From a virus, in the IMG/VR virus record IMGVR_UViG_3300037549_000321, positions 1 to 44,431 of that record: 44,431 bases of DNA. The stretch is one strand, 5' to 3'. Every line of letters begins with the position of its first letter. Position 1 is the first letter of the stretch. Below are positions 3,119 to 40,703 of this stretch, piece after piece. Below the pieces are notes generated by a model. The model saw only the letters and a program-made list of their open reading frames with translations. It searched no databases and had not been told where the DNA came from. The translations under genes were made by a program, and so were the position numbers.

Positions 3119-3711
3119 CGCGGGCGCGGCGGGAGCGGCTGATCCTGGACAACATGCAGGTGGTGCGCAAGATTGCGCGGCAGGTGTCGCGTAAGTTCGC
3201 GGCGCACTTGCGCCTCGAGGACTTTGAGGCAGACGGGTACGTGGGACTCTGCACGGCGGCGCGCCGGTGCCGGAAGGTTTCCACGTTTCCGCAGTTCGCG
3301 TACTTTGCCATTCGGGGGGCGATGATCACGGCGCATCGGCGGAAGGCGTACCGGGAGGACCTGAACCCGTCGCTAGACAGCATGGCGAGCACGCGCGGTT
3401 CCGAGCAGTTGTGTCTGGAGTCTCACCTGGCACACGAGAGCTCCGGCGATACCAACATCAACATTGGGGCGCGAGATCTGGGGCCGCTGCCCGACGAGCT
3501 GGCGGCGCGGCGTGAGCTGGAGGCCTTCGCGGCGGCGGCGATCGCGCTGCTGCCGGAGGATGAACGATTCGTGATCGGCCAGGCGCTGGGCGGGGTGAAG
3601 CTGGTGGAGATTGCGGCGGCGCGGCAGCGCTCGGCGACGTGGGCGCGGGGGAAGCTGGCGGCGGCGCGGGAGAAGGTGACGGCGGCGGTGGACCTGGGGA
3701 AGGCGGCGTGA
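3115..3711 (+). CDS. Sigma-70 family (phage sigma-like) protein
   Basis: A 198-residue RNA polymerase sigma-like protein; ATG 3115 overlaps the previous stop. Residues 8-75 match sigma region 2 (VVRKIARQVSRKFAAHLRLE, DFEADGYVGL, then FPQFAYFAIRGAMITAHRR, the usual core-binding and -10 recognition helices). Residues 140-190 match region 4 (LLPEDERFVIGQALGGVKLV, then a helix-turn-helix with ATWARGKLAAAREKV). The linker is non-conserved. It could direct host RNA polymerase to phage late promoters, or serve as a DNA-binding packaging accessory. It is embedded in the packaging module between small and large terminase genes. Confidence 0.82.
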   Translation: MTRARRERLILDNMQVVRKIARQVSRKFAAHLRLEDFEADGYVGLCTAARRCRKVSTFPQFAYFAIRGAMITAHRRKAYREDLNPSLDSMASTRGSEQLCLESHLAHESSGDTNINIGARDLGPLPDELAARRELEAFAAAAIALLPEDERFVIGQALGGVKLVEIAAARQRSATWARGKLAAAREKVTAAVDLGKAA

Positions 3712-6213: not shown

Positions 6214-6507
6214 ATGGAAGGGATCGACATTCAGAGTATCGTGCGGCAGGTGATGCGCGAGGAGCACCAGAAGCAAGAACAGGAAGACATCGACGAGCGG
6301 GAACTGGCGCGCACGTGCGGCCGGCAGGTATACGCCGCGGAGTTGGTGGAATTCCTGGGCGAAGTCTCGGCGGCGGGGACGGAAGCGCTACTGCGGCTGC
6401 TGGGTGGCCCGGAAGTGCCGAGTAAGGCCACGTGCGCAGATGTGGGCTCGGCGACTCGTTTACTGCGCGAGTCGGCTAAAGCGCTGGCGAGAACTGGCGG
6501 GCGATGA
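6214..6507 (+). CDS. Hypothetical protein before the portal gene
   Basis: A 97-residue, mostly helical protein; residues 1-30 are very charged (VMREEHQKQEQEDIDERE) and residues 45-70 are leucine-rich. I prefer ATG 6214, preceded by CGGAGGGGAT, over the in-frame ATG 6196 that lies inside the dispersed repeat. Its last four bases overlap the portal start (ATGA), showing translational coupling. Function unknown. Confidence 0.65.
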   Translation: MEGIDIQSIVRQVMREEHQKQEQEDIDERELARTCGRQVYAAELVEFLGEVSAAGTEALLRLLGGPEVPSKATCADVGSATRLLRESAKALARTGGR

Positions 6508-8714
6508 CGCAGCAGGATTTCCAGTTAAAGTGGCCGGAAGCGGAGTTATCGCGCCTGGCGAACCGGGTGCAGATCGACTACCGCTCCGCGCTGGCCGATC
6601 ACAACAAGCGGATGGCGCGGTGGCGCGAGTACTATCGGCGGTGGCGGTGCGCGACGGATCCGCCGGCGATGGGGGAAGAGGCGGCGAGCAATGTGCCGGT
6701 GCCCTATATCCGCTGGAACATCCTGACTAAGTGGGCCAAGGAGATGGACTCACTGTTCGGGGACGATGCGGAGATCGTGGCCGTGCCGGTGGGCGCCAGC
6801 GACTATAAGCGCGACAAGAAGATTGGGCGGTACATGACCTGGCGCGTTTTCAACTCCATGAAGTTGATCAAGGCGTTCTGTGTCTTCGTGCAGCGGAAGC
6901 TGTTGTTCGGGAGATCGATCGCGTACTCGCCATGGAAGCGCGACACGTTCCAGGTGCTGAACCCGGCCAGGGAGTATCAGCCGGAGGACGTGGTCGATTA
7001 CGAAGGGCCGGACTTCATCCCGCAGTGGCCGGACGACATCATTGTGCCGTGCGAGGAAGTGGCCACGATCCACGAGTTCAGCTATGTGATCCGCAAGTAC
7101 CGGCCGACGCCGGACCAGCTCTTGCAGGGCGAAGCGGATGGGAAGTACCAGGGGATCACAAAGAACTGGGAAAAGATCGTGCAGATGGCCCAGCGCGGCC
7201 GGCAGCGGGAGCCGGAAGGCGATGAGGTCAAGCGCGAGGCGGACCAGGCGGAGGGGCTGCAATACGAGCGGCCGCAATCGGCTGGGGAGTCGCTGCTGGT
7301 GCTGGAGTGGTACGGACGCTGGCGGCCGCTGAAGAAGGGACCGCGCGGCGGGATGGCCTCCGCCGGCGAGTACGACGTGAAGGCGCGCGAGATGCGCCAG
7401 AAAGAGTATGTGGTCCGATACCTGTGGGATCTGAACATGGTGATCGGGCTGCAGGACCTGCAGGAGCTCTATCCGACGAAGAAGAACCGGCGGCCGTTTG
7501 TGGAGAGCGCCATGATGGCGGACGGCACTTACTGGTCTCCGGGCATGGCGGAGATGCTGATCGACCTGGAAGACGAGCTGCGGGTGAATCACAACCAGGC
7601 GACGGAGGCGGGGGAGTTCGCGCTATGTCCTCCGGTGGGGTACCGGCCGGCGTCGGGACTGACTCCCGAGACCATCCGGTTGGAGCCGAAGATGGCGATC
7701 CCGATGGACAACCCGGATAAGGATCTGCGGCAGATCCAGATCCACGCCGATATGGCGATCGCGCAGTGGAAAGAGCAGTGCGTCCTGGCCTATGGCGAGA
7801 AACTGACCGGGATGGGCGACTTACAGATGGGCCGGCAGTCGGATAGGCCGAACGCGCCACGGACCGGGGTGCAGACCACTCAGTTACTGGAAGAGGGGAA
7901 CGTCAGGATCAGTCTGGACACGAAGGTGCTGGCCGACGATATGGCGGGGGTGCTGGCGCACTTCTGGGATCTGGAGTATATGTTCTCTCCGGAACAGACG
8001 TTCTTCCGGGTAACGGAAGAGGACGCCGACGGGGCGTTCGAGGTGAACAACGGGGCCAGCATGCTGAGCATTGAGGACCGCGATGGGCGGTACGATTTCC
8101 GGCTACAGTTCGCGAATTCGCAGTGGAGCAAGGAAGCCGATAAGCAGAAGACGCTGGCGCGCTACCAGCTCAACCTGCAGAATCCGCTGATCATGAACAA
8201 TCCGGTGGCGCTATGGGAAGTGACACGGGAGGCGAACGAGGCGCTGGGGTTCCAAGACTTCGCCAGTATTGTGCCGAGGCCTCCGCAGCCAGATATCTCA
8301 ATCGATCCGAAAGAGGAGTGGATCAGTCTGCTGCATGGGGAAGAGATCCACGTCAATCCGCAGGATAACGACCAGCTCCACTTACTGCGTCACATGAAGG
8401 ATCTGAAGGCGGCGGAGACGGATCCCAACGGGGACGTGGAGGCGCAACACAAGCTGGTGGCGCACTACCACGATCACATTCTGCAATTGCAGCAGAAGAA
8501 ATTGCAGCAGGCGGTGGTGGAGCAGGCGGTGCAGGCGGCCGCGCAACTGGCGGGTGGGGGCGGGGCGCCTGGAGGTGGGGCGCCTGGAGGTGGCCCTGGG
8601 GCGATGCCTCAGGGGTTGTTCGGCGGGACGCAACAGACAGAGCCGCCGGGGAATCCGATGGCGACGGGGCCGTACGTCTATAGCGGCCATCCCGAGGTTC
8701 TTCACGAATCATGA
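6504..8714 (+). CDS. Portal protein
   Basis: A 736-residue protein at the portal position, right after the terminase block. Residues 1-110 contain a long helical stretch with YRSALADHNKRMARWREYY and VPVPYIRWNILTKWAKE, typical of the large portals of short-tailed phages; the middle is mixed alpha/beta (NPAREYQPEDVVDYEGPDF), and the long helices near 590-680 would form the barrel/crown. The C-terminus is Gly/Pro/Gln-rich with a doubled GGGAPGG segment from a short tandem repeat. The dodecameric portal sits at one capsid vertex and is the DNA channel and motor docking site. Length fits P22-like/large podovirus portals. Identification is from context and overall pattern. Confidence 0.85.
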   Translation: MTQQDFQLKWPEAELSRLANRVQIDYRSALADHNKRMARWREYYRRWRCATDPPAMGEEAASNVPVPYIRWNILTKWAKEMDSLFGDDAEIVAVPVGASDYKRDKKIGRYMTWRVFNSMKLIKAFCVFVQRKLLFGRSIAYSPWKRDTFQVLNPAREYQPEDVVDYEGPDFIPQWPDDIIVPCEEVATIHEFSYVIRKYRPTPDQLLQGEADGKYQGITKNWEKIVQMAQRGRQREPEGDEVKREADQAEGLQYERPQSAGESLLVLEWYGRWRPLKKGPRGGMASAGEYDVKAREMRQKEYVVRYLWDLNMVIGLQDLQELYPTKKNRRPFVESAMMADGTYWSPGMAEMLIDLEDELRVNHNQATEAGEFALCPPVGYRPASGLTPETIRLEPKMAIPMDNPDKDLRQIQIHADMAIAQWKEQCVLAYGEKLTGMGDLQMGRQSDRPNAPRTGVQTTQLLEEGNVRISLDTKVLADDMAGVLAHFWDLEYMFSPEQTFFRVTEEDADGAFEVNNGASMLSIEDRDGRYDFRLQFANSQWSKEADKQKTLARYQLNLQNPLIMNNPVALWEVTREANEALGFQDFASIVPRPPQPDISIDPKEEWISLLHGEEIHVNPQDNDQLHLLRHMKDLKAAETDPNGDVEAQHKLVAHYHDHILQLQQKKLQQAVVEQAVQAAAQLAGGGGAPGGGAPGGGPGAMPQGLFGGTQQTEPPGNPMATGPYVYSGHPEVLHES

Positions 8715-9205: not shown

Positions 9206-9438
9206 ATCCAAAATTCCTGGCTATTGGCCAACTGATCGTGAACGCGGTGCACATTGTTTCGGTGGATCTGCGGAGCCCCGGGACGGCACACCTTCAACTG
9301 TCGAGCGGCAACGTGTATACGTTTGTGGCCGATGAGGCGGCGGCGGTGGCCGCGTTCTTCAAGGCTATCGACTCGGCGGGAACGGAGCCGGGGACGCTCC
9401 CTGACGGTCGCGGCTCGGATGGCTCCTCGCCGGCATGA
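9202..9438 (+). CDS. Small hypothetical protein with repeat-derived tail
   Basis: A 78-residue protein. Residues 1-57 form a plausible small alpha/beta fold (FLAIGQLIVNAVHIVSVDLR, then YTFVADEAAAVAAFFKAI). Residues 62-75, TEPGTLPDGRGSDGSS, are encoded by a dispersed host-type repeat (9396-9420) read in frame, so the original protein probably ended around residue 60. Start and stop overlap the neighbours by four bases. Confidence 0.65.
   Translation: MNPKFLAIGQLIVNAVHIVSVDLRSPGTAHLQLSSGNVYTFVADEAAAVAAFFKAIDSAGTEPGTLPDGRGSDGSSPA
9396..9420. repeat. LPDGRGSD-coding repeat, copy 1
   Basis: GCTCCCTGACGGTCGCGGCT followed by CGGAT, 25 bases, identical to 31446-31470 and 23/25 identical to 14751-14775. 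Read in frame it encodes Leu-Pro-Asp-Gly-Arg-Gly-Ser-Asp. I recall such peptides in many acidobacterial proteins. Confidence 0.85.
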
Positions 9439-12108: not shown

Positions 12109-13029
12109 ATGTATTTGCGCACGTCCGTACCGGATCTCTACATGCAGACGATGCTGCCTGCCATCGATGAGATCGTGCAGGAGAAGTATGCCCGTTGGCC
12201 GACACAGTACACGGAAATCTTCCGCATGCGGACGACGACCCGGGGAATCGAGCAGACCACGGAAGTGACCGGGTTCGGTCAAATGGCGGTGGTGCCGGAA
12301 AACTCCGGAGTGCCGTACACCACGCCGCTGCCCGGGTTGAGCAAGACCTACCTGACGGCGCAGTACGCCATGGGGTTCAAGGTGTCGCGCCTGGCGAAGG
12401 ACGACGACCGGCACGGGACGGTGGCGAAGTTCGCCGGCTCGCTGGGGAAATCGGCGGCGGAAACGAAGGAAGTGGTGCACGCCGGCGTGTTCAACACGGG
12501 GTTCACCGCGACGGTGGGACCGGACGGCCTGGCGCTGTTCAACACGGCGCATCCGTTGATGGGCGGGCGCACGCGCACCAACCGGGCGGCGGCGGCCAGC
12601 GATCCGGACATGACGTCGATCGGCCTGGCGCTGACGGACATGCGGCTGCAGATCGACCAGACGGGCAAGAAACTGCGGCTGCCGGCGCGGAAGGCGATCT
12701 TCCCGCCACAGTTGGAATTCGCGGCCGCGCAGTACCTGGGCGGAGTGGACGATCCGTCGACGGCCAACCGGGCAATCAATCCGTTCAAGCGGCGCAGTGG
12801 TCTGCCGAGCTTCGATAGCTGGATGATCTGGGACTACCTGACGGATCCGCACGCCTGGTTCCTGGAAGCGGACGTGGCCGACACGGAGCTGCGGAGCTAC
12901 GAGCACGAAGCGTTCAACACGATCCACGATGTGGACTTCGATACGCGGAGTTTGAAGACGGCGGGCTGGATGCGGTTCGGTTGCGGGTTCAACGGCGACG
13001 CGGGGATTTACGGGGTTCCGAGCAGCTAG
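12109..13029 (+). CDS. Major capsid protein
   Basis: A 306-residue protein at the capsid position after the scaffold and decoration-like genes. Residues 1-60 form the N-terminal arm and early helices (PDLYMQTMLPAIDEIVQEKY), 75-115 resemble the extended loop region, and LALFNTAHPLMGG near residues 143-155 resembles the FxxxHP-type turn of Mu gpT-like capsid proteins. The C-terminus returns to a beta/helix core (TLxx-like SLKTAGWMRFGCGFNGDAGI). An HK97 fold is inferred; hundreds of copies would build the head. ATG 12109 follows GAGGGGGGCC. A GCAGAG-type spacer repeat lies directly downstream. Confidence 0.85.
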   Translation: MYLRTSVPDLYMQTMLPAIDEIVQEKYARWPTQYTEIFRMRTTTRGIEQTTEVTGFGQMAVVPENSGVPYTTPLPGLSKTYLTAQYAMGFKVSRLAKDDDRHGTVAKFAGSLGKSAAETKEVVHAGVFNTGFTATVGPDGLALFNTAHPLMGGRTRTNRAAAASDPDMTSIGLALTDMRLQIDQTGKKLRLPARKAIFPPQLEFAAAQYLGGVDDPSTANRAINPFKRRSGLPSFDSWMIWDYLTDPHAWFLEADVADTELRSYEHEAFNTIHDVDFDTRSLKTAGWMRFGCGFNGDAGIYGVPSS

Positions 13030-25899: not shown

Positions 25900-28647
25900 G
25901 TGGAACAGATCTACAAGCTGCAACCGGACCGGACGATGCACTTGCAGGGGTTCGACGGGTATGGGTGTACGGCGGCTTTGTGGGGGGCGTCGGGCGACGG
26001 GTTCACGGTGTCTGGGGTGTGGGGGCAGCAGGACGATTTTGTGGTGCTGGTGCTGTGGGACGCGGATTGCTTCTTTGAGCATCCACGGTTCAAGTATTTG
26101 CCGGACTTCGATTTCTCTGGGATCACGCTAAGTTACACGGAGACGCGGCCGGGGTGCGTGCCGATGGATTCGACGTTGTACCCGTGGATCGACTGGGCGT
26201 ACTTGAATATTCTGGGGGCCGATGGAGTGGAGCGCCAGGTCCGGCTGCTGGACTATGCGGCCGCGGTGGGTGGATATACGGACGCCACGGTGCAGTTTGA
26301 GCTGCAGGGGACGCCGACGACGGGCGACTACATTGAGCTGGCCTGGCTGGATCAACATTTCAATTACCAGTTGGTGGGGACGGACACGCTGGAGACGGCG
26401 CTTGGATTCCTGGCGGCGACGATCATGGCGAATCAAGCGAGAGGATCGGTGAGCGCGGTGGCCAGCGGGACGATGATCGTGCTGACCTACGACAATGCGC
26501 CGGGAGCGAATGGCAACCGGATCGGCGTCTATGGGACGGTCCACGGCGCGGGGACGGAAGGGTGGACGCCGGCGGCGAGCAGTTTTGGCGGCGGGGTATC
26601 GCCGGGGCAGTGGACGATTACGCTGCCTTTTGACAGCTTGGTGGATACGGCCGGCGCGGCGGTGCCGACGACGATTCAGAAGATGTGGTTGACTCTGGCG
26701 CCAGAGATACAGGGCGGCGGCGGTTTTGCGCGCAGCGAGTTTGCGTTCGTGGTGACGGACTGGACAGTGACGGACGCCAATGGGACGCGGGCACTACAGG
26801 TGGCGGGGCCGGGGTCGGTGCGGATGGAGGACTACGACCGCTGGGTGGGGCGGAGCGGATTCTGGGAGGCGGCGCCGGCGAACTGGTGGAGTCAGGGATC
26901 GGCCATCCGGGCGGCGGCGGCCGGGGCGAAGTTGACGATTGAGACGCACTGCCAGAGCGTCCACGACATCTACGTGGGGACGTTGCTGGACGTGAATTGC
27001 GGGATTGTGTCGGCGAGCCTGGACGGCGGGGCGGCGGTGACGTTGGACTGCTACGGGAGCGGGATTGTGACGCGGCGGCTGTTGTTCGCGGGCGTGGCGG
27101 CGGGGGCGCACTCGGTTGGGATCACCTTGACGGGTAATAAGAACGCGAGCAGCGGAGGGTGGTATTTCTACTTCGATTTCCTGGAGTGCGCGGTGCGGAG
27201 CGACGTGCCGGACGCGGCGGTGGTGATGAGCGACGTTTCGGCGGCCATCGACTACGACACGGATCACGGCTACAAGCTGAGTCCGCAGCGGCTGATGAAT
27301 CTGTTCGACAAGCTGGGATTCGCCGGGCCGATGAACGAATACGTGGGGGTGTTCTGGTGGCCACAGCGGACGCTCTACGGGAGCACGTACGCGGCGGGCA
27401 CGATTGTGTTTGGTGGGCAGCCGGAGTTCGGGAAGGTCACCTCGATCACGCTGGCCGAGACGGCCATCACGCATCTAAATCTGATTGGCGACACGGCGGC
27501 GAGCATTGCGACGTGTTTCGCTCTGCTGGTGAACCAGGGATCGACGGCGGTCTGGGCAGAGGCCAACGGCGCCGTGTTGACGTTGACGGCGCGGGCTTGG
27601 GGGCCGAACTACGAGTTGGCGCTGGCGTGCGCGACGAACAGCACCCAGTTCAACGCGGCGGTGACGCCGTTGACGGGGGGCGTCCCCGGCACGTGGGGTG
27701 TGGATCCGGCGGCGAACGTCATCATGAACCGGGCGGCGATAGACTGGCACGTGGATTTCTATGCGGAGGTGGCGAAGCGGGGGATGGCGGTTACGTCGTC
27801 GCTTTCGATGGAACTGGTGAATCCGCCGGGCGCGTGGGCGGCACTGTTTGGGGACGGGACGGCGGTGACGACGGCGACGGGATTCGGGACGCTGAATAGC
27901 ACGCAGTGCGCGCCTGGGATGGCGGCTTTCTTGGCGTACCAGACGGCGGCATTCCAGATATTGGCGGAGTTGCAGGCCGCGGCGGGGTTGACGCCGAGCC
28001 TGCAATTCGGCGAGTTTCTGTGGTGGTACTTTGCGGGGCCTGGCACATCGGGAATGGCCTATTATGACGCCGAAACGGTGGCGGCGGCAACGCTCGAGCT
28101 GGGGCGGCCGCTGGCGGCGTTTCTGACACCGAATGACGACCCTGGGGTGAACGGGTACGCGGATGCGCAGTTTCTGCGGGCGCGGCTGCGGGACCATGCG
28201 CAAGCGATCCGGGCAGCGGTGCAGGTGGCATTTCCGGGGACGGTGTTTGAGGCGCTGTACCCCTACGACGTGAACTATCCGCGGGTGTATGGGCCGAATA
28301 AGCTGGGCGGGCGATTGAATCACTACGTGAACACGCCGCCGGAGTGGATGAACCCGGGGGCGGGGTTTCTGGAGGGGATGAAGACGGAGGCTCTGGACTT
28401 TGCGAGTGGGACGCGGAGCCTGGACCTGTGCGCGGAGGCGATCCGGCTGGCGGTGGGGTGGGGGTGGCCAGTGGCGCGGGTGGGGTACCTGGTGGCGCTG
28501 TTCAATGGCGGATGCCCGTGGCAGTACGACCTGGCGCTGGGGCGGACGGCGCAGGTTCCGGCGGTGATTCTGTGGGCTTTGGACCACGTGTGTTTGTTCG
28601 GCTGGGCGCCGTGGGAGGAATTGGCGCCTGGTGTCGAATCAATGTAG
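25900..28647 (+). CDS. Large tail protein with possible TIM-barrel region
   Basis: A 915-residue protein (GTG 25900). Residues 1-310 are beta domains with many Trp/Tyr (GYGCTAALWGASGDGFTVSG). Residues 315-440 look like a carbohydrate-binding-type jelly roll (GIVSASLDGGAAVTLDCYGS, AGAHSVGITLTGNK). From about 455 on, WHVDFYAEVAKRGMAVTSSL, LQFGEFLWWYFAG, a D-A-E motif, AAFLTPNDD and VFEALYPYDVNYPRVYG alternate strands and helices like a glycoside-hydrolase-type TIM barrel. I recall TIM-barrel tail proteins in some phage tails; here it may be a structural barrel or a surface-glycan hydrolase. Catalytic acids cannot be assigned with confidence (Glu in QFGEF is a candidate). Confidence 0.65.
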   Translation: MEQIYKLQPDRTMHLQGFDGYGCTAALWGASGDGFTVSGVWGQQDDFVVLVLWDADCFFEHPRFKYLPDFDFSGITLSYTETRPGCVPMDSTLYPWIDWAYLNILGADGVERQVRLLDYAAAVGGYTDATVQFELQGTPTTGDYIELAWLDQHFNYQLVGTDTLETALGFLAATIMANQARGSVSAVASGTMIVLTYDNAPGANGNRIGVYGTVHGAGTEGWTPAASSFGGGVSPGQWTITLPFDSLVDTAGAAVPTTIQKMWLTLAPEIQGGGGFARSEFAFVVTDWTVTDANGTRALQVAGPGSVRMEDYDRWVGRSGFWEAAPANWWSQGSAIRAAAAGAKLTIETHCQSVHDIYVGTLLDVNCGIVSASLDGGAAVTLDCYGSGIVTRRLLFAGVAAGAHSVGITLTGNKNASSGGWYFYFDFLECAVRSDVPDAAVVMSDVSAAIDYDTDHGYKLSPQRLMNLFDKLGFAGPMNEYVGVFWWPQRTLYGSTYAAGTIVFGGQPEFGKVTSITLAETAITHLNLIGDTAASIATCFALLVNQGSTAVWAEANGAVLTLTARAWGPNYELALACATNSTQFNAAVTPLTGGVPGTWGVDPAANVIMNRAAIDWHVDFYAEVAKRGMAVTSSLSMELVNPPGAWAALFGDGTAVTTATGFGTLNSTQCAPGMAAFLAYQTAAFQILAELQAAAGLTPSLQFGEFLWWYFAGPGTSGMAYYDAETVAAATLELGRPLAAFLTPNDDPGVNGYADAQFLRARLRDHAQAIRAAVQVAFPGTVFEALYPYDVNYPRVYGPNKLGGRLNHYVNTPPEWMNPGAGFLEGMKTEALDFASGTRSLDLCAEAIRLAVGWGWPVARVGYLVALFNGGCPWQYDLALGRTAQVPAVILWALDHVCLFGWAPWEELAPGVESM

Positions 28648-28774: not shown

Positions 28775-29023
28775 ATGCCATCTTTAAACGATGCAATCAC
28801 CGCGGTAGAGCAGGGCCTGACGGCCTATAGCACCGCATCCACACAGACCAGCAACGACCAGGCCGCGGCCAGCGCGCTGCAGGCGAAGTTGGACGGGGCA
28901 ACGGCGCAAGTGTCCACCGATCAGCAGGCCCAGGCGGCCGTGGCGGTTACGCTGAATGCCGCCCTGGATTCGCTGAGCGCCTCGGCACTGGCAGCCAAGA
29001 TACCGGCGCCGCCGGTGGCGTGA
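28775..29023 (+). CDS. Small coiled-coil protein
   Basis: An 82-residue, alanine- and glutamine-rich, all-helical protein (AITAVEQGLTAYSTASTQTS, then ALQAKLDGATAQVSTDQQAQ) with a proline-rich end. It looks like a coiled-coil virion or assembly protein. The open frame extends upstream to 28631, but the preceding codons cover the spacer; ATG 28775 gives the coherent protein. Its stop overlaps the following GTG. Confidence 0.6.
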   Translation: MPSLNDAITAVEQGLTAYSTASTQTSNDQAAASALQAKLDGATAQVSTDQQAQAAVAVTLNAALDSLSASALAAKIPAPPVA

Positions 29024-29892
29024 AGCCGCAACTGGAATTGATCGATCCGTTCCCGAACTGGGCCTGGCCGCAAGTCTGGGCCTGGCTGGAACCCATAGCG
29101 CACCTGGTGGGGGACGACTTCAGTCCGAAGACAATCGAGCAGTATGTCGAATACTCCATTAGGGCCTCGGAGCGAGGCCGGGTGATGGGTATAGGGGACG
29201 GGGGCAAACTATGTGGCGCGGTGATGTTCGAGCGGGCCAGTCCGGTGATGGCCATCATGCACGTGCTGTTCGCGCCGTGGTACCGGGGATCGAAGCGCAA
29301 GTGCGAGGCGTCGCGGTTGGCCTGCGGGCGGCTGTTCGAGACGACGGAGACGCTGAAGATTCTGGGGCTGGTGCCGGCGGACAATCGGGCGGCGATTGCG
29401 CTTGCCGTGCGCGGAGGCGCCCAAGTGGAAGGGGTACTGCGGAGCCACTCGGTGCGCGGGGGCAAGGCCATCGACGTGGTGGCGGTGGGGATAACGAAAG
29501 AGGAGTTCGCACATGGGATTGAACTTCGGCGGACAGAGCGCGCAGCAGTCGGCCAGCACGTCGGGCACGAGCAACTCGACGAGCACGCCTACGTACACGA
29601 GCGACCAGTCGGGGTTGCAGACTATGTTGAGCAGCCTCTTCAAGACGCTGATGCCGGCGGCGACGTCGGGGAGCATCTCGCCGAATGTGCAGGCGATGCA
29701 AACGGCGGGAGCGGACCAGATCAACAAGACCTCGGCGGGGCTGGGGGACCGCATGCAGAAGTTCCTGGCACAGCGCGGATTCGGGTCCAGCGGGACATCG
29801 GGAAAAGTGGCGCTGCAGGGCGAGTTGGGCAGGGAAAGCGCGCTGGGGGCAAACGCCAGCGCGGCAAGCGGGTTACAGCTCCAACAAAATAG
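29020..29892 (+). CDS. GNAT acetyltransferase-like protein with overlapping tail
   Basis: Residues 1-165 look like a small acetyltransferase of the GNAT type found in tail/assembly regions of phages: a beta pair with GKLCGAVMFERASPVMAIMH, VLFAPWYRGSKRKCEASRLA (the acetyl-CoA-binding-like turn and helix) and ILGLVPADNRAAIALAVRGG (the N-x-x-A-x-x-hxxxxGF-like motif). Beyond residue 165 the frame continues for 125 codons entirely inside the next gene and has shadow-like composition (Gly, Asp, Arg, Gln). So the functional protein is probably about 165-170 residues and its stop has been lost, or the overlap is genuine. GTG 29020 overlaps the upstream stop. Confidence 0.6.
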   Translation: MKPQLELIDPFPNWAWPQVWAWLEPIAHLVGDDFSPKTIEQYVEYSIRASERGRVMGIGDGGKLCGAVMFERASPVMAIMHVLFAPWYRGSKRKCEASRLACGRLFETTETLKILGLVPADNRAAIALAVRGGAQVEGVLRSHSVRGGKAIDVVAVGITKEEFAHGIELRRTERAAVGQHVGHEQLDEHAYVHERPVGVADYVEQPLQDADAGGDVGEHLAECAGDANGGSGPDQQDLGGAGGPHAEVPGTARIRVQRDIGKSGAAGRVGQGKRAGGKRQRGKRVTAPTK

Positions 29893-31305: not shown

Positions 31306-34300
31306 ATGGGGAGCACATTCGTACCACCGCGCCTGGATCAGTGGGAGCCGGCGAAGCCAGCGTTGCCTGACGGTCGGGGTTCGGTCAGCGCGTCGGGATT
31401 CGTGCCTCCGGCGCCGGATTCGTGGGAACCGACGAAGAAGCAGACGCTCCCTGACGGTCGCGGCTCGGATATGGGGGCGCCGGTTCGGCTGTCGGACCAG
31501 TTGCCGGCCCCTGACGACGTGGTGCGGCAGGCGACGGTAGCGGCGCGGGCGATTGTGGATGTGGCCACGCGGCCAGGGCCGGCGCGGGTGCCCTCTCTGC
31601 CTGTGCCGTGGGAACTGAGTTTACAGCAGCCGAACCCAAATGCTCACGGGCCTGGCTGGATCACCGGCAAAGACCAAACCGATATTCCGCAGCAGATCCT
31701 GGACATGACTGCGGGTGGCATTGGAAAGCTGGCGCAGGGTGTGGAGCAGATGGCGGAGCCAGGCGGCCGCCAGAAGGCCGGCGGTCTGCACCAGGTCATC
31801 TCGGGCGGATTCGAGGCGGCGACGCCGGCGATGGTGGCGGGCGGGATCGCGGCGCCGCTCAAGACGGCCGTCGTAGTGGGTGCGGCGATGGCGGCGCAGA
31901 AGGGTACGGAAGTGGGGCTCAAGTACCTGGGTCTGCCGCGGGAGTACTCCGAAGTGGCCGGCGACCTGGTCGGGTTGGTGGCGGCGGCCGTGGCGCACGG
32001 GAAGCTGAGCAGGCCGGCGATCCGCGACACCATCGAGCCGGTGCTGAAAGAGCGGGCTGCCAAGAAGGCGGCGGCGCCGGCGGAACAGCAGTACACGAGC
32101 ACGGGGGAGCCAGTGGGTGGGGGATTCACGCCGCCGCGGCCGGACCAGTGGGAACCAAAGGGGGAGAGCACAAATGCCGAAACGAAAGGTAAGCAAGCCG
32201 GGACACCGGGGCAGCCTGTTACAGGCGCTGGAGCAGAGCAGCCAGGATCAGCAGTCGGACAAGCGGATGTTGCCGCGCAGGCCTCCGGCGCCGAAGGGCA
32301 AGTAGGGGGCGGCGTCCCTGGTGACGAGCTCTACGGCCGGGCCGTGGCGGAAGCGCGGGAGATGACTTCGGCCATTCCGGGCGGCCTGGTGAGAAAGCTG
32401 GGGATCAGTAACGCTCAAGCGGTACAGCTAATCGCCAGGATGAAGGCGGATAAGGTCCTCGACCAATCCGGCCGTCCTCTGGACGAGGGCGGGAACCTGA
32501 TTTTCAGGTATCAGACGAGAACGGGGGCAGGATCGATTCAGACGCCGGAATTCGGGCCGGACGGTAAGCCGCTACGTGCGGCGACGGCACCCAGTGGCTC
32601 ACCGGGTGAGCCTGCGAAGGGAACGCCTTACGACACGCCGGAGATCGTGGCGGCGCGGGCGCGAGCGGCGGCGATTCCGCGGACCAATCTGATTAAAACC
32701 CCGGAGCGGCAAGCGCTACGCAGCGACGCGGAGAGCCAGGTTTATAAGCCAGAGGGGGTAGAGAAAGGTAGGCAGGCGTACCTGTTCATAGGGAATCCGG
32801 GTTCGGGTAAGTCCACCCTTGCCGAGCGACTGGCCACGGAGACGCATAGCCTGGTGGTGGATTCGGATCCTATCAAGAAGCTGCTGCCAGAGTATGGAAA
32901 CGGTGAAGGCGCCGGGGCGGTACACGATGAATCGTCGGATATTGCCGACAAGGTTCTGGGGCGCGCGAGGGCTGAGGGGCTGAACATAGTCCACCCCATT
33001 TTGGGTCGGAATATCGAGAAGGTGCGCGGACTGCGCGACGAACTCCAGGCGGATGGTTACGACGTTCACCTGGTGCACGTCGATCTGCCAATTGAGAAGG
33101 CGGCGGGGCGGGTGGTGACGCGTTTTCAGGAGGGTGGGCCTTTTGTCGATCCTGCGTTCGTAACCAATGAAATCAAGGGTTCGGCGAAGGCGAACTATGA
33201 TACACTGGAGTCAGAAGGGGGCTTCAAGTCTTATGCCGAATTCTCTAACGACGTCCCCCGCGGAGCCGATCCCCGCTTTGTCGGAGGAAGAGGCTTTGAA
33301 GCGTTACCTGGCCTACAATCCGTACGACGAGGATCACGACCGGACAGTGGCGTACCTGCGCAACGAGCGCCTGGCGCGGGAAGCAGCCAAGCAGAAGGCC
33401 CCGCCGGCAGCGGAACCCCAGCAGGAAACCCCGCAGCAGCCCCAATGGACGGCGGAGCAGTTGGCGCGGTGGACGCCGGAGCAGTTGGAGAAAGGGGCGC
33501 GGTTCAGGCGGATGCTGGTGCAGGCCCGCGACGCGTACCTGGAGAAAACACGGATATCCCCACGCCCGGCAACACCGGGGACATCCACGCCCGATACGAA
33601 GTCCGCGAGCTAGCGGACGTACAGCCATCGCACAACGGGCAGACCTTTTCCGCCAATCCAAAGTACGGACACCGGAACGAGCGCGACTACTCCAAGCCTG
33701 AGAACCAGCAGCGGGTGATCGAGAATTCGAGCGAAGAGCGCTTCAATCCGCGGTACCACATCACCGATAATCCAGACGCCACGAATGGGCCGATTGTGGT
33801 GGACGAGGCGGGGAACGCGCTGGGCGGGAACAGCCGCGCCATGATGCTGCAGCGGGTGTACGGGCGCGACGCCGCGGGCGCGGCGGCTTACCGGGGACTG
33901 CTGGAGAAGCGAGCGGGGCAATTCGGCATCGACCCTGAAGCAGTGCGCGGGATGAAGCAGCCGGTGCTGGTGCGGGTGGTGTCGAATGCGGAGCTGGCCT
34001 CGGTGCCGGACGGGGCGGCCGGGATCATTCGCAGAACCAATATCAGCGGGACTGCGGCGCTCAGCGCGAGCGAGCGGGCAGCGGCGGATGCGAGGCAATT
34101 GCACCCGGACCTGGTGCAGCATATCGCCGACTCTATCGAGGCGGCCGGGCCTAGCGCCACGCTGAACGACGCGCTGACGGGAAAGAGCGGCACGGCGATA
34201 GTGAACCGGCTGATTGCGGAGGGATTCTTCAGCGAGCAGGAACGGCCGGCGCTGATGGACGGCAAGACGGGCGCGGTGACGCAGTTGGCGAAGGACCGGA

Positions 34301-37080
34301 TCGGCAAGGCGCTAGTCGGGCAGTTCTTCCGCGATTCGGACCAGATTGCGCGGACGCCGGCGGCGATCAGGGGGAAGCTGGAGCGGGTGGCGGCGCCCCT
34401 GGCGAAGGTGCAGGGCAATGCGGACTGGGATCTGACGCCGGCGATTCGCGAGGCGGTGGACCTGGTGGAGTACGCCAGTGCGCACGGAATTAAGAATCTG
34501 GGCGATGTGGTGGCGCAACAGAGCATGTTTGGGGACACGCCTTGGAAAAGCGACGCGGTGACATTGGCGGGGTGGCTGCGGGACGCCAAACCGAATGACC
34601 TGGTGTCGGCGGTGCGGGGATATGTGGGCGACCGGGAGCCCACGATGTTCGGCGAGACGACTCCGGAGGCGGCATTCAGACAGCACTTCGGAGGGGAGAA
34701 GGCGGCGCGCGGGGGTGGCTCACCAGGTGGGCCTGTGGGAGGAGCTCCGGTTGCCGGACCTGGCGGCCAGGTGGCTGGTGGCCAGCCAGTGGCGGAGGAC
34801 GTGCCACCGCCGCCGCCGGCGCCGGGGCCGGTGACGCAGTTTCTGAAAGAGGAAACCGGGACCAGTTTGGTGGGGGCGATTCTGAAGGCGGACGCGAAAG
34901 AGGCGCTGGCGCTGAAGGCGAAGCGCGACGCGGCGCTGGGGGAGATGGAGAAGGCGAAAGCCACGCCGGGACAGCAGAAGTTCGGCGAGAAGACGATCCA
35001 ATACTTCACCGGGGAGCGGGACTTGTGGGGCGCGCGGGTGAACCAGGTGATCGGGCGGCTGCGCAAGCTGGTGCCGGATCCGGTGGAGCAGGAAGCGCTC
35101 TCGCTGATGCGCGACTTCAAGGGGAAGAGGGCGGAGCTGGTGCAGTTCCTGGAGGGGACGCATCCGGCTTTCAACGAGCTGGACAGCAACACGCCGCTGA
35201 TGCGGGGCGGCCCGGGCTCGGAGTACGCGACGGCGATGGAGCGCATACAGCAGTTGCGGCCGGCGATTCTGAAGGCGCTGGATCCGACGCCGCGCATGCT
35301 GGAAGCCGATGAGGTGTTGAGCACGATCGCGGCGGGGACGCTGAAGGAAGGGCAACGGCTGGGGATCCTGGAGAGCCGTTGGACGCCGGAGCAATATAAC
35401 CCGCACATCCTGCACCCGAAGGGCGAAGGCGAGCTGCCGACGCAGCCGGCGGGGGACAGGATGGGGAAGGCCATCGGCGGGAAGATGGGGCGGTACTTCG
35501 CATTCGCCGAGACGCGCGAGTTTCCAACGCTGCTGGACGCGGTGGTGAATAACTACCGGCCCAAGACGCTGAATGCGTTCGATGCGTTCACGATCCACGG
35601 GGATAAGTTTGCCACGGCGCGGGCGACGCACTTACTGACCACTCAGTTAGCCGACTCGGGGATGGGTAAGTGGGGAGTGAGGGAGCGGGCGCCGGAAGGA
35701 TGGGAACCGCTGGCGGCGCACTCGACGGAGTTCCGCAACCTGGTGGGATACACCGATCAGGAAGGCCTGCCGGCGGCGGCGGAGCAGCGGTTATTCGTGC
35801 CGCGGTTCATCAGCGACGCGCTGCGGCCGATCACGGATCCGGATTACATGGGGCGGATCCCGTTGTTCCGCGGGATGCGGATGACGCAGGCGTACCAGAA
35901 GACGGTGCAGTTGGGGCTGAGCTTCTTCCACGCGTACACGGAGAACCTCATGAGCCTGGCGAACTCGGGGCCGGTGGGGTGGGCGAAGGCCTTGCGAGCG
36001 GACCGGGACAGTCCGGAGTTTCTGCGGAGCGAGCGGGACATGATTGCGCACGGGGGGACGTCGGCGATTCAGGGGCGGACTTACGAGGCGTACCGGGCGC
36101 TGGAGCCGGGGTCGATTCCGACGTGGAGCGATATCTGGCGGCGGGCGCCGGTGGTTCACCAGATGGACCAGGTGGCGGGGAAGATCACGGACTTCACTTT
36201 CGGGAATCTGCAGCGGCGATTCAAGGTGACGGACTACGAGCTGCACGCGGCCGGGTGGCTGGCGAAGCATCCGGAGGCGACGGCGGCGGAGACGGCGGCG
36301 GCGAAGCACTCGATCACGAAAGAGCTGAATGCGGTGTATGGCGGGCTGAACGCGGAGAACCTGGGGGTGAGCCGGGCGAGCACGGAAGTGGCGCGGGCGC
36401 TGATGCTGGCGCCGGACTGGACGTTCAGCAACGTATTCAACGTGAAGTACGCGTTGGAGCGGGGGACGCCGGCGGGGAGCATGGCGCGGATGTTCTGGCT
36501 GCGGACGACGGTGGGCGGCCTGGCGGCGACGCAGGCGATGAGCCTGATGCTATCGGGGAGGACCTCGAAGAATCCGACGCAGGTGTATTTTGGGCGGGAT
36601 CGGGACGGCAACGAGATCTACCAGAACGTGTTCTTCAAGGGCGCCGGCGGGGATGCGATCAACCTGATTCACAACGTGGGGGACTACGGGGCGGTGGAGG
36701 GCCTGGCGCGGAGTCTGGCGGGGAAGGCGGCGCCGATCCCTCGAGCGGCCTTGCAGGTGGCGACGAACCGGGACTACCTGGGGCGGCCGATGGTGCCGCA
36801 GGGAATGAATCCGATTGCGGGGACGGTGCGGGGCGCGGTGAAGACGGGGGCGGCGCTATTGCCGGTGCCGTTCACGGTGAGCAATCTGCACGATATGCTG
36901 TTGGGCCCGGAGGCGGGGAAGTACAGCGTACCGGAGTTTCTGACGACGACGTTCAGCGGGAATCCGCCGCGGCACATGCCACCGGAGGGGATGCGGCACG
37001 GGCGGAACGGGGAGATGGTGGAGAAGCCGTACCGGGAGCCTCGGGGGATCTGGGACCAGATGGTGAGCGGACGGCCTTAA
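31306..37080 (+). CDS. Giant polyvalent phage protein: FtsK-gamma-like, zeta kinase and DdrB/ParB-like domains
   Basis: A 1924-codon frame. Residues 1-60 and about 275-285 carry three copies of F(V/T)PP..D.WEP; two LPDGRGS(D/V) repeat inserts lie between the first two. Residues 338-400 resemble the FtsK gamma winged helix (LYGRAVAEAREMTSAIPGGL, then LVRKLGISNAQAVQLIARMK). Residues 480-660 are a zeta-toxin-type kinase: Walker A GNPGSGKST at 496, VVDSDPIKKLLPEY, HDESSDIADKVL, HLVHVDLPIEKAAGRVVTRF. Residues 762-1133 match the DdrB/ParB-like domain (YEVRELADVQPSHNG, GGNSRAMML near 840). Residues 1185-1924 are a long helical region of the kind found in large injected polyvalent proteins. Two stretches appear to code in frame +2 (32174-32305, 33233-33613). 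Such proteins are thought to enter the cell with phage DNA. Confidence 0.85.
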   Translation: MGSTFVPPRLDQWEPAKPALPDGRGSVSASGFVPPAPDSWEPTKKQTLPDGRGSDMGAPVRLSDQLPAPDDVVRQATVAARAIVDVATRPGPARVPSLPVPWELSLQQPNPNAHGPGWITGKDQTDIPQQILDMTAGGIGKLAQGVEQMAEPGGRQKAGGLHQVISGGFEAATPAMVAGGIAAPLKTAVVVGAAMAAQKGTEVGLKYLGLPREYSEVAGDLVGLVAAAVAHGKLSRPAIRDTIEPVLKERAAKKAAAPAEQQYTSTGEPVGGGFTPPRPDQWEPKGESTNAETKGKQAGTPGQPVTGAGAEQPGSAVGQADVAAQASGAEGQVGGGVPGDELYGRAVAEAREMTSAIPGGLVRKLGISNAQAVQLIARMKADKVLDQSGRPLDEGGNLIFRYQTRTGAGSIQTPEFGPDGKPLRAATAPSGSPGEPAKGTPYDTPEIVAARARAAAIPRTNLIKTPERQALRSDAESQVYKPEGVEKGRQAYLFIGNPGSGKSTLAERLATETHSLVVDSDPIKKLLPEYGNGEGAGAVHDESSDIADKVLGRARAEGLNIVHPILGRNIEKVRGLRDELQADGYDVHLVHVDLPIEKAAGRVVTRFQEGGPFVDPAFVTNEIKGSAKANYDTLESEGGFKSYAEFSNDVPRGADPRFVGGRGFEALPGLQSVRRGSRPDSGVPAQRAPGAGSSQAEGPAGSGTPAGNPAAAPMDGGAVGAVDAGAVGERGAVQADAGAGPRRVPGENTDIPTPGNTGDIHARYEVRELADVQPSHNGQTFSANPKYGHRNERDYSKPENQQRVIENSSEERFNPRYHITDNPDATNGPIVVDEAGNALGGNSRAMMLQRVYGRDAAGAAAYRGLLEKRAGQFGIDPEAVRGMKQPVLVRVVSNAELASVPDGAAGIIRRTNISGTAALSASERAAADARQLHPDLVQHIADSIEAAGPSATLNDALTGKSGTAIVNRLIAEGFFSEQERPALMDGKTGAVTQLAKDRIGKALVGQFFRDSDQIARTPAAIRGKLERVAAPLAKVQGNADWDLTPAIREAVDLVEYASAHGIKNLGDVVAQQSMFGDTPWKSDAVTLAGWLRDAKPNDLVSAVRGYVGDREPTMFGETTPEAAFRQHFGGEKAARGGGSPGGPVGGAPVAGPGGQVAGGQPVAEDVPPPPPAPGPVTQFLKEETGTSLVGAILKADAKEALALKAKRDAALGEMEKAKATPGQQKFGEKTIQYFTGERDLWGARVNQVIGRLRKLVPDPVEQEALSLMRDFKGKRAELVQFLEGTHPAFNELDSNTPLMRGGPGSEYATAMERIQQLRPAILKALDPTPRMLEADEVLSTIAAGTLKEGQRLGILESRWTPEQYNPHILHPKGEGELPTQPAGDRMGKAIGGKMGRYFAFAETREFPTLLDAVVNNYRPKTLNAFDAFTIHGDKFATARATHLLTTQLADSGMGKWGVRERAPEGWEPLAAHSTEFRNLVGYTDQEGLPAAAEQRLFVPRFISDALRPITDPDYMGRIPLFRGMRMTQAYQKTVQLGLSFFHAYTENLMSLANSGPVGWAKALRADRDSPEFLRSERDMIAHGGTSAIQGRTYEAYRALEPGSIPTWSDIWRRAPVVHQMDQVAGKITDFTFGNLQRRFKVTDYELHAAGWLAKHPEATAAETAAAKHSITKELNAVYGGLNAENLGVSRASTEVARALMLAPDWTFSNVFNVKYALERGTPAGSMARMFWLRTTVGGLAATQAMSLMLSGRTSKNPTQVYFGRDRDGNEIYQNVFFKGAGGDAINLIHNVGDYGAVEGLARSLAGKAAPIPRAALQVATNRDYLGRPMVPQGMNPIAGTVRGAVKTGAALLPVPFTVSNLHDMLLGPEAGKYSVPEFLTTTFSGNPPRHMPPEGMRHGRNGEMVEKPYREPRGIWDQMVSGRP
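31362..31386. repeat. LPDGRGSD-coding repeat, copy 3 (diverged)
   Basis: CGTTGCCTGACGGTCGGGGT followed by TCGGT, a diverged member of the family (changes at both ends and the Arg/Gly codons), read in frame as Leu-Pro-Asp-Gly-Arg-Gly-Ser-Val within the giant protein. Confidence 0.65.
31446..31470. repeat. LPDGRGSD-coding repeat, copy 4
   Basis: Identical over 25 bases to 9396-9420 and in frame (Leu-Pro-Asp-Gly-Arg-Gly-Ser-Asp). It lies 84 bases from copy 3; the intervening sequence repeats the F-V-P-P..D.W-E-P motif, suggesting a local duplication. Confidence 0.85.
32174..32305 (+). CDS. Nested small basic protein (frame +2)
   Basis: A 43-codon ORF inside the giant frame but in frame +2: MPKRKVSKPGHRGSLLQALE, then QSSQDQQSDK and a proline/lysine-rich end. 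GGGGGAGAG lies seven bases before its ATG, a good ribosome-binding site. By hand count 36 of 43 codons end in G or C, against 21 of 42 in the overlapping giant frame, so this frame carries the coding signal of the region. The product would be a small basic peptide of unknown function. Confidence 0.5.
   Translation: MPKRKVSKPGHRGSLLQALEQSSQDQQSDKRMLPRRPPAPKGK
32596..32612. repeat. Short palindrome GGCTCACC-G-GGTGAGCC
   Basis: An eight-base perfect inverted repeat with a one-base loop, in the linker between the FtsK-gamma-like and zeta domains. A related but imperfect copy (GGCTCACCAGGTGGGCC) lies near 34715-34731 in another linker of the same gene, suggesting a dispersed element tolerated in linkers. 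Confidence 0.5.
33233..33613 (+). CDS. Nested protein behind the zeta domain (frame +2)
   Basis: A 126-codon ORF from ATG 33233 overlapping the end of the zeta domain and the linker before the DdrB/ParB-like domain. The product is protein-like: LSEEEALKRYLAYNPYDEDH, YLRNERLAREAAKQK, then WTAEQLARWTPEQLEKGARF. By hand count over 80 codons from 33302, 69 end in G or C, against 37 of 80 in the giant frame for the same bases, so frame +2 is almost certainly the selected frame here. AGAAGGGGG lies about ten bases upstream. Its place directly behind a zeta-type kinase makes an immunity or partner protein possible, but this is only inference; no epsilon antitoxin similarity is seen. Confidence 0.65.
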   Translation: MPNSLTTSPAEPIPALSEEEALKRYLAYNPYDEDHDRTVAYLRNERLAREAAKQKAPPAAEPQQETPQQPQWTAEQLARWTPEQLEKGARFRRMLVQARDAYLEKTRISPRPATPGTSTPDTKSAS

Positions 37081-39516: not shown

Positions 39517-40030
39517 GAGCTGCAGCTACTGCTTCGGGAGCGGGTGTGTCGGGATTTACGAGGCCAAGCGGGTCTGCAATTGCGTGTACCGGCGCATCGC
39601 GCGGGAGTGCCTGGCGCGGTACCGGCGGATCCGGGCGACTGGCCCATGGGGGTGGGGTGGCATCCAGCGGACCAGGTCGGGGCGTCTGGTGCGCGGCTTC
39701 ATTGATTCGGAATTCGTAGTGGAGATCGAGCTCTGTGCGCGGCGCGTGCTGACGGGGACGGAGCTGCGGTTGTTTGAGATGTACGAGCTAGGGGCCGGTT
39801 GGGAGTGGCAGGAGTGCGCGCGGGTGCTGCGCATGGATCGGGGGAATTTCTTCCACGCGGTCTACGCCGTGGAGCGGAAGCTGGGCAAGGCGTTCTCCAG
39901 CGCGGGACCGTGGGGGCTGTTCCCCATGCGCCGCTATTTCGGCGGAGGGGTTGACGAGGCGCAGATCGGCCGGCCGATGGGGAGAACCGGACTCACGTGG
40001 CGCGAGGATGAGAAGTCAGCACTGGGGTGA
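39386..40030 (+). CDS. Zinc-finger plus sigma4-like HTH protein
   Basis: A 214-residue protein. Residues 47-66 carry a DnaJ-type cysteine cluster (CSYCFGSGCVGIYEAKRVCN, then C). Residues 125-175 (LRLFEMYELGAGWEWQECAR, VLRMDRGNFFHAVYAVERKL) look like a helix-turn-helix of the sigma region 4 type, followed by a PWGLFPMRRYFGG segment. A zinc finger with such a helix-turn-helix recalls late antiterminator (Q-like) regulators of lambdoid phages, and it lies at the end of the early group; this is inference. Confidence 0.65.
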   Translation: MNPSVAAKTPAPPWLLSGKHKHARIVEDAERTDLAGIALVLADESCSYCFGSGCVGIYEAKRVCNCVYRRIARECLARYRRIRATGPWGWGGIQRTRSGRLVRGFIDSEFVVEIELCARRVLTGTELRLFEMYELGAGWEWQECARVLRMDRGNFFHAVYAVERKLGKAFSSAGPWGLFPMRRYFGGGVDEAQIGRPMGRTGLTWREDEKSALG

Positions 40031-40049
40031 TGGGCGAATAATTGGAAGC

Positions 40050-40703
40050 ATGAACTGTGCGATCTACGCTCGGGTGTCTACGACGGACCAGAACTGCGCG
40101 CTGCAATTGAGCGAGCTGCGCACCTATGTGAAGGCGCGGGGGTGGGCGAACGCAGGGGAGTACGTGGACACGGGATGGAGCGGGGCGAAGGCGTCGCGGC
40201 CGGAGTTGGACCGGTTGATGGAGGATGCACGGAAGCGCAAGGTGGACTGCATCCTGGTGTGGAAGCTGGACCGGTGGGGGCGGTCGGTATCGAACCTGCT
40301 GAGCAGTCTGCACGAATTAGCGGGGCTCGGGGTGCGGTGGATCGCGGTGACGCAGAACCTGGACACGGACGAAGCGAACCCGGTGGGGCGGCTGCTGCTG
40401 CACATCCTGGCGTCGGTGGCGGAGTTCGAGCGCACCATGATCTCGGAGCGGACGAAAGCGGGGGTGGCGATCGCGCGGGCGAAGGGGAAGCACTGCGGGC
40501 GCCCTTGGAAGGTATTCCGGCGGGACCTGGCGGAGTCGCTGCGGGATAGCGGGCTGAGTTGGCGGGCGATCGAGAAGAAGCTGGGAGTCAATCAGGCGAC
40601 GATCCGGCTGGCAGTGGCGAAGCGCAAAGCCGAGCGGAAAGCCGCGAAAAAGCCCAAAAAAGCGGTGTGTAATAAGCCTATCGCAAAGGGCCCTCGTAGG
40701 TAG
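40050..40703 (+). CDS. Small serine recombinase (resolvase/invertase type)
   Basis: A 217-residue serine recombinase. Ser10 in YARVSTTDQN is the nucleophile; the conserved arginine-bearing helix LVWKLDRWGRSV (near 70-80), the region EFERTMISERTKAG and the C-terminal helix-turn-helix (DSGLSWRAIEKKLGVNQATI) follow in family order, with a lysine-rich tail. I chose ATG 40050 (MNCAIYARVS); the longer upstream frame lies in the preceding gene. Such enzymes invert, resolve or integrate DNA. A 9-base inverted repeat lies directly downstream and is a candidate site. This is the second recombinase in the element. Confidence 0.92.
   Translation: MNCAIYARVSTTDQNCALQLSELRTYVKARGWANAGEYVDTGWSGAKASRPELDRLMEDARKRKVDCILVWKLDRWGRSVSNLLSSLHELAGLGVRWIAVTQNLDTDEANPVGRLLLHILASVAEFERTMISERTKAGVAIARAKGKHCGRPWKVFRRDLAESLRDSGLSWRAIEKKLGVNQATIRLAVAKRKAERKAAKKPKKAVCNKPIAKGPRR

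What the first reader, a model, noticed from the sequence alone, without database searches (positions are those of the whole stretch)
32320..34705. Zeta-toxin kinase domain fused between an FtsK-gamma-like helix and a DdrB/ParB-like domain in an injected-type phage protein
The motifs are visible in one reading frame: DELYGRAVAEAREM...LVRKLGISNAQAVQLIARMK (FtsK gamma-like), GNPGSGKST with VVDSDPIKKLLPEY and HVDLPIEKAAGRVVTRF (zeta kinase), and YEVRELADVQPSHNG with GGNSRAMML (DdrB/ParB-like). Polyvalent proteins combining toxin, ParB and DNA-binding modules are known as a class; a zeta kinase acting on UDP-sugars at the moment of infection, next to a chromosome-reading FtsK-gamma-like helix, is an unusual mix. 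By eye GC3 is about 70% in the zeta part against about 85% around it, suggesting separate acquisition.
Basis: partly seen in the sequence, partly recalled or inferred. Interest (0 to 1): 0.8.

Follow-up and report, generated by a model that had tools for sequence, protein, structure and literature searches.

The report
Swappable zeta-kinase module in phage protein
A soil-phage gene encodes a giant multi-domain protein, probably carried in the virus particle and injected into bacteria, in which a toxin-type kinase sits in a slot that sister phages fill with other domains; the kinase lacks residues that the classic cell-wall-attacking toxin needs, so it probably acts on something else or is weakened.

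Summary
The protein is real: one 1924-aa ORF (31306-37080 +). Zeta_toxin (53 bits, cut-off 22) and ddrB-ParB (56 bits, cut-off 28) are clearly present; the FtsK-gamma match is sub-threshold (15.4 versus 30.6 bits), so only a probable winged helix. AlphaFold gives a confident zeta fold (pLDDT 93), best PDB matches epsilon/zeta toxins. It is a polyvalent protein in the sense of Iyer et al. 2017, who already list zeta-like kinases, DdrB-ParB and FtsK wHTH as modules; zeta+ParB is annotated in Halovirus HCTV-5. New here: (1) orthologues keep the N-terminal, ParB and C-terminal parts, but the segment holding the kinase (residues 263-722) is exchanged: histidine phosphatase in one, no kinase in others. 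The GC3 dip fits that slot. (2) The kinase belongs to a supported phage clade (21 of 42 sampled) without zeta's Thr118, nearly all with Pro for Glu116, residues zeta/PezT toxins need; the window copy alone also lacks the Arg171 equivalent (Pro; Arg in 41/42). The "UDP-sugar kinase at infection" reading is therefore weakly supported. Best explanation: an exchangeable, probably virion-injected zeta-fold module with an altered acceptor, or a partly decayed one. New variant of a known kind; moderate interest.

The parts
31306..37080 (+). 1924-aa polyvalent-type protein ORF, last large gene of the virion-structure block
   Evidence: upstream genes match terminase, portal, head, tail and tail-sheath families
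31318..31350 (+). N-terminal short repeat copy 1 (FVPPRLDQWEP)
   Evidence: copies 2 and 3 at 31399-31431 and 32125-32157
31345..32091 (+). N-terminal part conserved in orthologues L002, L003, L005 (residues 14-262; 39-48% identity, only part of it in L005), with hydrophobic Gly/Ala-rich stretches
32092..33471 (+). Slot A (residues 263-722): exchanged among orthologues; low GC3 (0.64, z -7.6)
32320..32466 (+). Probable winged helix resembling FtsK gamma (sub-threshold)
32602..33414 (+). Kinase cassette shared with L022 (residues 433-703, 41% identity), wider than the kinase fold itself
32659..33300 (+). Zeta-toxin-fold P-loop kinase domain (residues 452-665); K502, D521 and R606 kept; P564, L566 and P612 replace Glu116, Thr118 and Arg171 of S. 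pyogenes zeta
33574..33981 (+). ddrB-like ParB domain (residues 757-892) with the conserved GGNSR motif
33982..34701 (+). Region after ParB conserved in all close orthologues (to residue 1132)
34702..34902 (+). Slot B (residues 1133-1199): short linker here; a PBECR1-like nuclease in L005 and a zeta kinase in L016 lie at this position
34903..37077 (+). Conserved C-terminal part (residues 1200-1924; 45-59% identity in L002-L005), no known family

Best explanation
The ORF encodes a polyvalent protein that is made with the virion genes, packaged, and injected with the DNA (packaging and injection inferred from context). A fixed backbone (N-terminal part, DdrB-type ParB nucleotide/DNA-acting domain, conserved C-terminal part) carries exchangeable effector modules in two slots. 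In this phage slot A holds a zeta-fold kinase with a probable small winged helix in front of it. The kinase belongs to a phage clade that keeps the ATP side of zeta (Walker lysine, catalytic aspartate, first arginine) but has lost the acceptor-side Glu116/Thr118 pair, so it most likely phosphorylates another small molecule or nucleic acid end (or hydrolyses ATP) early in infection to favour the phage, rather than poisoning cell-wall synthesis through UDP-GlcNAc. The window copy also lacks the Arg171 equivalent, so its activity may be weak. Shown: domains, fold, slot exchange, residue losses, clade. Inferred: virion packaging, injection, substrate, benefit.
For: Domains over threshold; confident zeta fold, best PDB hits epsilon/zeta; profile hit to zeta E 1.8e-21. 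Backbone shared with L002-L006 (ParB part 64-75% identical) while slot A differs: His_Phos_1 36.8 bits in L003, a kinase-free shared segment in L002/L004, almost nothing in L005; slot B holds zeta in L016 (48.7 bits) and a near-threshold PBECR1 in L005. GC3 dip matches slot A. Same order zeta then ddrB-ParB in L022, where the kinase cassette is 41% but the ParB stretch only about 29% identical to the window, as expected of module exchange. Other fusions L025, L255, L073, L070, L016. Residue map: K502, D521, R606 invariant in 42 kinases; Thr118 column 20 T versus 22 V/L/I; 21 no-Thr sequences cluster at 97/86, and at 97/78 without the motif columns. Zeta D67, E116, R158, R171 are each essential (PMC6356619) and PezT T118V is non-toxic (PMC3062530).
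Against: No proteomics of this or any relative was available, so packaging and injection are inference. The residue mapping rests on sequence and profile alignments, not on an inspected superposition. An altered substrate is argued from lost contacts only; no acceptor is identified. The lost Arg171 equivalent could mean that this copy is simply inactive. The slot sample is small (about 11 backbone relatives), all from metagenomic phage contigs, some incomplete.
Confidence: 0.6

Rival explanations
1. Classic zeta action: the injected kinase phosphorylates UDP-GlcNAc (or UDP-MurNAc precursors) and weakens peptidoglycan to help DNA entry or lysis, as Iyer et al. proposed for zeta domains in polyvalent and MuF proteins.
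For: Zeta fold and best PDB match are UNAG kinases; D67, K46 and R158 equivalents kept; published proposal (PMC5512222).
Against: Glu116 and Thr118 equivalents are Pro and Leu, and Arg171 is Pro, each essential or toxicity-determining in zeta/PezT; zeta relatives, one annotated as zeta+ParB, occur in haloarchaeal viruses whose hosts lack peptidoglycan (host fact from general knowledge); no epsilon antitoxin family in the record.
Confidence: 0.12
2. The kinase domain in this phage is a decaying or pseudo-enzyme module that now serves only as a spacer, ATP sensor or protein-binding part.
For: Only sequence of 42 with Pro instead of Arg at the Arg171 column; its branch is about twice that of its nearest relative L022 (0.9-1.0 versus 0.4); low GC3 segment.
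Against: ORF intact; Walker A, catalytic Asp and R158 equivalents kept; fold predicted at pLDDT 93; clade-wide loss of E116/T118 is shared by many intact proteins and so is not decay.
Confidence: 0.22
3. Intracellular, non-injected late protein: an assembly or host-takeover factor made during the lytic phase, not carried in virions.
For: No direct evidence of packaging; the gene follows structural genes but no proteomics was found for these phages.
Against: DdrB of phage P1 is found in the head (PMC5512222); relatives of the kinase are fused to MuF and portal domains.
Confidence: 0.2

Closest known systems
Polyvalent proteins of phages with DdrB-like ParB domains (Iyer et al. 2017, PMC5512222)
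   Same: Multi-domain late-gene product with ddrB-ParB next to enzyme modules; zeta-like kinases and FtsK wHTH are listed as modules; domain reshuffling is described
   Different: The paper text places zeta kinases in conjugative elements and MuF fusions; this exact slot exchange and the Glu116/Thr118-less kinase clade are not mentioned in the passages read
Halovirus HCTV-5 gp114 (annotated zeta toxin and ParB nuclease domain protein)
   Same: Zeta kinase N-terminal to a ParB domain in a large protein coded upstream of the major capsid protein
   Different: Haloarchaeal virus; kinase about 32% identical; its ParB domain is not called by the ddrB-ParB model
L022 polyvalent protein (IMGVR_UViG_3300028024_000002)
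   Same: Same order, zeta then ddrB-ParB; kinase cassette 41% identical over residues 433-703; same P-x-[VL]-G clade
   Different: ParB only about 29% identical; keeps Arg at the Arg171 column; shorter protein, other backbone
Epsilon/zeta and PezT toxins (1gvn, 3q8x, 2p5t)
   Same: Fold; Walker A lysine, catalytic aspartate, R158 equivalent
   Different: Stand-alone toxin with antitoxin; E116, T118 and R171 equivalents not kept here; no epsilon family in the record
AvrRxo1 (zeta-fold NAD 3'-kinase)
   Same: Precedent for a zeta-fold kinase lacking the UNAG motif and acting on a nucleotide instead (PMC5087710)
   Different: Type III effector of a plant pathogen; only a profile-level match (E 2e-10); no evidence that the phage domain uses NAD

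Membership tests
Zeta toxin (UNAG kinase) fold family | Pfam Zeta_toxin match over cut-off | tested here: met
   53.1 versus 22.3 bits
Zeta toxin (UNAG kinase) fold family | Zeta-type P-loop kinase fold | tested here: met
   AF2 pLDDT 92.9; Foldseek best hits 3q8x, 1gvn, 2p5t
Functional UNAG-phosphorylating zeta toxin | Catalytic/ATP residues K46, D67, R158 | tested here: met
   K502, D521, R606; 42/42 in the alignment
Functional UNAG-phosphorylating zeta toxin | E116 and T118 (Mg/UNAG contacts) and R171 | tested here: not met
   P564, L566, P612 (requirement)
Functional UNAG-phosphorylating zeta toxin | Cognate epsilon antitoxin | tested here: not met
   no Epsilon_antitox match in the record; record may be a fragment
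Functional UNAG-phosphorylating zeta toxin | UNAG phosphorylation or toxicity | not testable with these tools
   needs biochemistry
DdrB-like ParB domain | Pfam ddrB-ParB over cut-off and the conserved arginine motif | tested here: met
   55.6 versus 27.6 bits; G-N-x-R columns invariant in 13 sequences
FtsK gamma domain | Pfam FtsK_gamma over cut-off | tested here: not met
   15.4 versus 30.6 bits
FtsK gamma domain | Winged-helix structure like 2ve8/2ve9 | tested here: inconclusive
   single-sequence model pLDDT 68, three helices plus short strands; top 8 Foldseek hits are FtsK gamma but E 0.6 or worse, probability 0.16 or less
Polyvalent protein of a phage | Several conflict-type domains in one polypeptide, coded by the late/virion gene block | tested here: met
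Polyvalent protein of a phage | Packaged in the virion and injected | not testable with these tools
   needs virion proteomics

The most novel reading that the evidence does not exclude
Phages carry a distinct clade of virion-delivered zeta-fold kinases (P-x-[VLI]-G in place of the [DE]-x-T motif) that have switched acceptor substrate away from UDP-amino sugars, and they swap this module in and out of a fixed DdrB-ParB injection backbone as host conflicts demand.
Probability: 0.35. Interest if true: 0.65.

Novelty: new variant of a known kind. Interest (0 to 1): 0.42.

Why it matters
Zeta domains in phage virion proteins have been proposed to act on the cell wall. The clade found here lacks residues needed for that, so many phage 'zeta toxin' annotations may be wrong about substrate, and the question becomes testable with one purified domain and a panel of acceptors. 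The orthologue set also offers a clean natural experiment on module exchange: same backbone, different effector in the same slot.

Tried and rejected
Single-sequence scan of viral contigs with the kinase domain found no relatives; an alignment seeded with HCTV, Phrappuccino and PSS2 kinases found 80. No relative of the FtsK-gamma-like segment in viral contigs, in 22 related records or in PDB sequences. ddrB-ParB region: no match in annotated phages and none in genome contigs, so the host is not known from a prophage. LPD38 as identity of the C-terminal part: rejected (hhalign E 0.64; no Pfam hit). Epsilon antitoxin in the record: none. GC3 dip as proof of acquisition alone: not accepted, because slot A of L003 and other orthologues is also somewhat low and L022's own kinase is not low; it is used only together with slot exchange. 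A wider alignment of 13 ParB domains was too diverse to scan with.

Full report
What is there. The window is a 44,431-base viral contig (IMG/VR record) with an integrase at 1-897, a weak sigma-factor-like match at 2773-3711, large terminase at 4063-5787, portal at 6504-8714, major head protein at 12109-13029, tail fibres, structural proteins, and a non-contractile tail sheath protein at 25900-28647. The flagged stretch lies inside one ORF, 31306-37080 +, 1924 aa, at the end of this virion block.

Domains. Pfam finds Zeta_toxin (53.1 bits for the domain alone, cut-off 22.3) and ddrB-ParB (55.6 bits, cut-off 27.6); FtsK_gamma is the best match of residues 330-400 but at 15.4 bits stays far below its cut-off of 30.6. 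The Zeta_toxin model rings in every control genome, so specificity was checked separately: a profile of the window kinase and 41 phage relatives hits S. pyogenes zeta first (E 1.8e-21) and PezT third, and the AlphaFold2 model (pLDDT 92.9, pTM 0.89) has epsilon/zeta and PezT as its eight best structural matches. The kinase fold is secure. The FtsK-gamma assignment is plausible but unproven: a low-confidence single-sequence model has three helices and short strands, and its eight best Foldseek hits are all FtsK gamma structures, yet with E 0.6 or worse and probability 0.16 or less. E. coli FtsK needs R1300 and E1303 of the recognition helix to read KOPS (PMC2680272); the aligned positions here look like Gln and Ala by eye, so KOPS reading has no support.

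Exchange slots. A scan for relatives of the kinase+ParB stretch returned five contigs, and all matched only the ParB part. Their proteins are orthologues over the ParB part (64-75% identity) and, where complete, over the N-terminal and C-terminal parts, but between about residues 262 and 722 of the window they differ: L003 has a histidine phosphatase domain (His_Phos_1, 36.8 bits, cut-off 21.7), L002 and L004 share another segment without a Pfam match, L005 has almost nothing there. After the ParB part L005 holds a PBECR1-like domain (24.9 bits, just below 27.6), and the more distant L016 holds a zeta kinase (48.7 bits). GC3 in the window is 0.81 in the N-terminal part, 0.64 in slot A, 0.80 in the ParB part and 0.89 in the C-terminal part; corrected for amino-acid content the slot has z = -7.6. 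Slot A of L003 is also low (z -3.6), so part of the dip may belong to the position, not the cargo. Together the exchange and the dip support module replacement.

How common is zeta plus DdrB-ParB. The nearest kinase relative, L022 (43% identity), has the same order, zeta then ddrB-ParB; the shared cassette covers window residues 433-703 at 41%, while the ParB stretch is only about 29% identical. L025, L255, L073 and L070 also carry both domains, and L016 has a ParB part clear by homology (HMM E 5e-78) though not by the Pfam model. Halovirus HCTV-5 gp114 is annotated 'zeta toxin and ParB nuclease domain protein' and lies upstream of the capsid gene. Of 37 phage zeta proteins, 5 carry a MuF domain and 2 a portal domain. 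Of 34 further ddrB-ParB proteins, 2 carry zeta and others carry DarA_N, pyrophosphatase, lysozyme, PBECR and LPD domains. The class is therefore known and the combination recurrent; Iyer et al. list zeta-like kinases, DdrB-ParB and FtsK wHTH among polyvalent modules (PMC5512222).

What the kinase can do. In S. pyogenes zeta, D67 is the catalytic base, T118 contacts the UNAG beta-phosphate (T-to-V in PezT is non-toxic), E100 and T128 are partly dispensable, and D67, E116, R158 and R171 are each essential for toxicity and ATPase activity (PMC3062530; PMC6356619). Mapped through two HMMER alignments and a MAFFT alignment, the window has K502 (K46), D521 (D67) and R606 (R158), but P564 (E116), L566 (T118) and P612 (R171). 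The missing Thr118 is not peculiar to this copy: 22 of 42 phage kinases lack it, and 21 of them, nearly all with P-x-[VLI]-G, form a supported clade (97/86; 97/78 when the motif columns are left out). The missing Arg171 equivalent is peculiar: 41 of 42 have Arg. A zeta-fold kinase without the UNAG motif has a precedent in AvrRxo1, which does not use UNAG but phosphorylates NAD and adenine nucleotides (PMC5087710). I therefore read the clade as kinases with another acceptor, and this copy as either such a kinase with reduced activity or one on the way to decay. The acceptor is unknown.

How it most likely works. Shown: a fixed backbone with a DdrB-ParB domain and an exchangeable slot that here carries a zeta-fold kinase. 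Inferred: the protein is packaged and injected, as DdrB of P1 is packaged (PMC5512222); the ParB domain acts on nucleotides or DNA; the kinase modifies a host small molecule or nucleic acid end early in infection. The cell-wall rationale is weak because of the missing residues and because related kinases occur in viruses of haloarchaea, which have no peptidoglycan (general knowledge).

Verdict. The finding is real and well read from raw sequence, but it is a new variant of a known class. The most interesting points are the exchange slot and the kinase clade without Glu116/Thr118, not the FtsK-gamma part.

Noticed in passing
window 31318-31350, 31399-31431, 32125-32157; also L003, L005, L006, L012, L014, L017: Most orthologues have their own short N-terminal peptide repeat in 2-3 copies (window F-[VT]-P-P-x-x-D-x-W-E-P; L005 GW[ND]VV[SG]SxP; L017 DFSDA[AG][QK]FG; L014 DY[EA]ALAK[QR]AGAIS). 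Sequences differ between phages but repeat within each protein and were not found in other ORFs searched; possibly a packaging or docking tag. Unexplained.
   Followed up: partly
window 31366-31382, 31450-31466, 9400-9416: A dispersed host-type repeat (encoding PDGRGS in the ORF) sits twice in frame in the N-terminal coding region; the 20-base core is common in Acidobacteriota (Bryobacterales, Solibacter) and Planctomycetes MAGs, hinting at the host phylum.
   Followed up: partly
window 25900-28647: Non-contractile tail sheath protein (TIM-barrel_NCTSP, 59 bits) in a phage contig that also has an integrase.
   Followed up: no
window 29020-29892: Match to an acyl-CoA N-acyltransferase (GNAT-like) family and to a head-morphogenesis family, shortly upstream of the polyvalent ORF.
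   Followed up: no
window 39951-40703: Serine recombinase/DNA invertase (E 2e-53) downstream of the polyvalent gene, besides the integrase at 1-897.
   Followed up: no
L017:6621-11675: By eye a second ParB-like stretch (LPVSEIQRHD...VEGFHRAAAAKLAG) in slot B; not called by Pfam.
   Followed up: no
L012:6498-10427: By eye an ADP-ribosyltransferase-like stretch (VLYHGTSAKPFTEF...) in slot B; below Pfam reporting.
   Followed up: no
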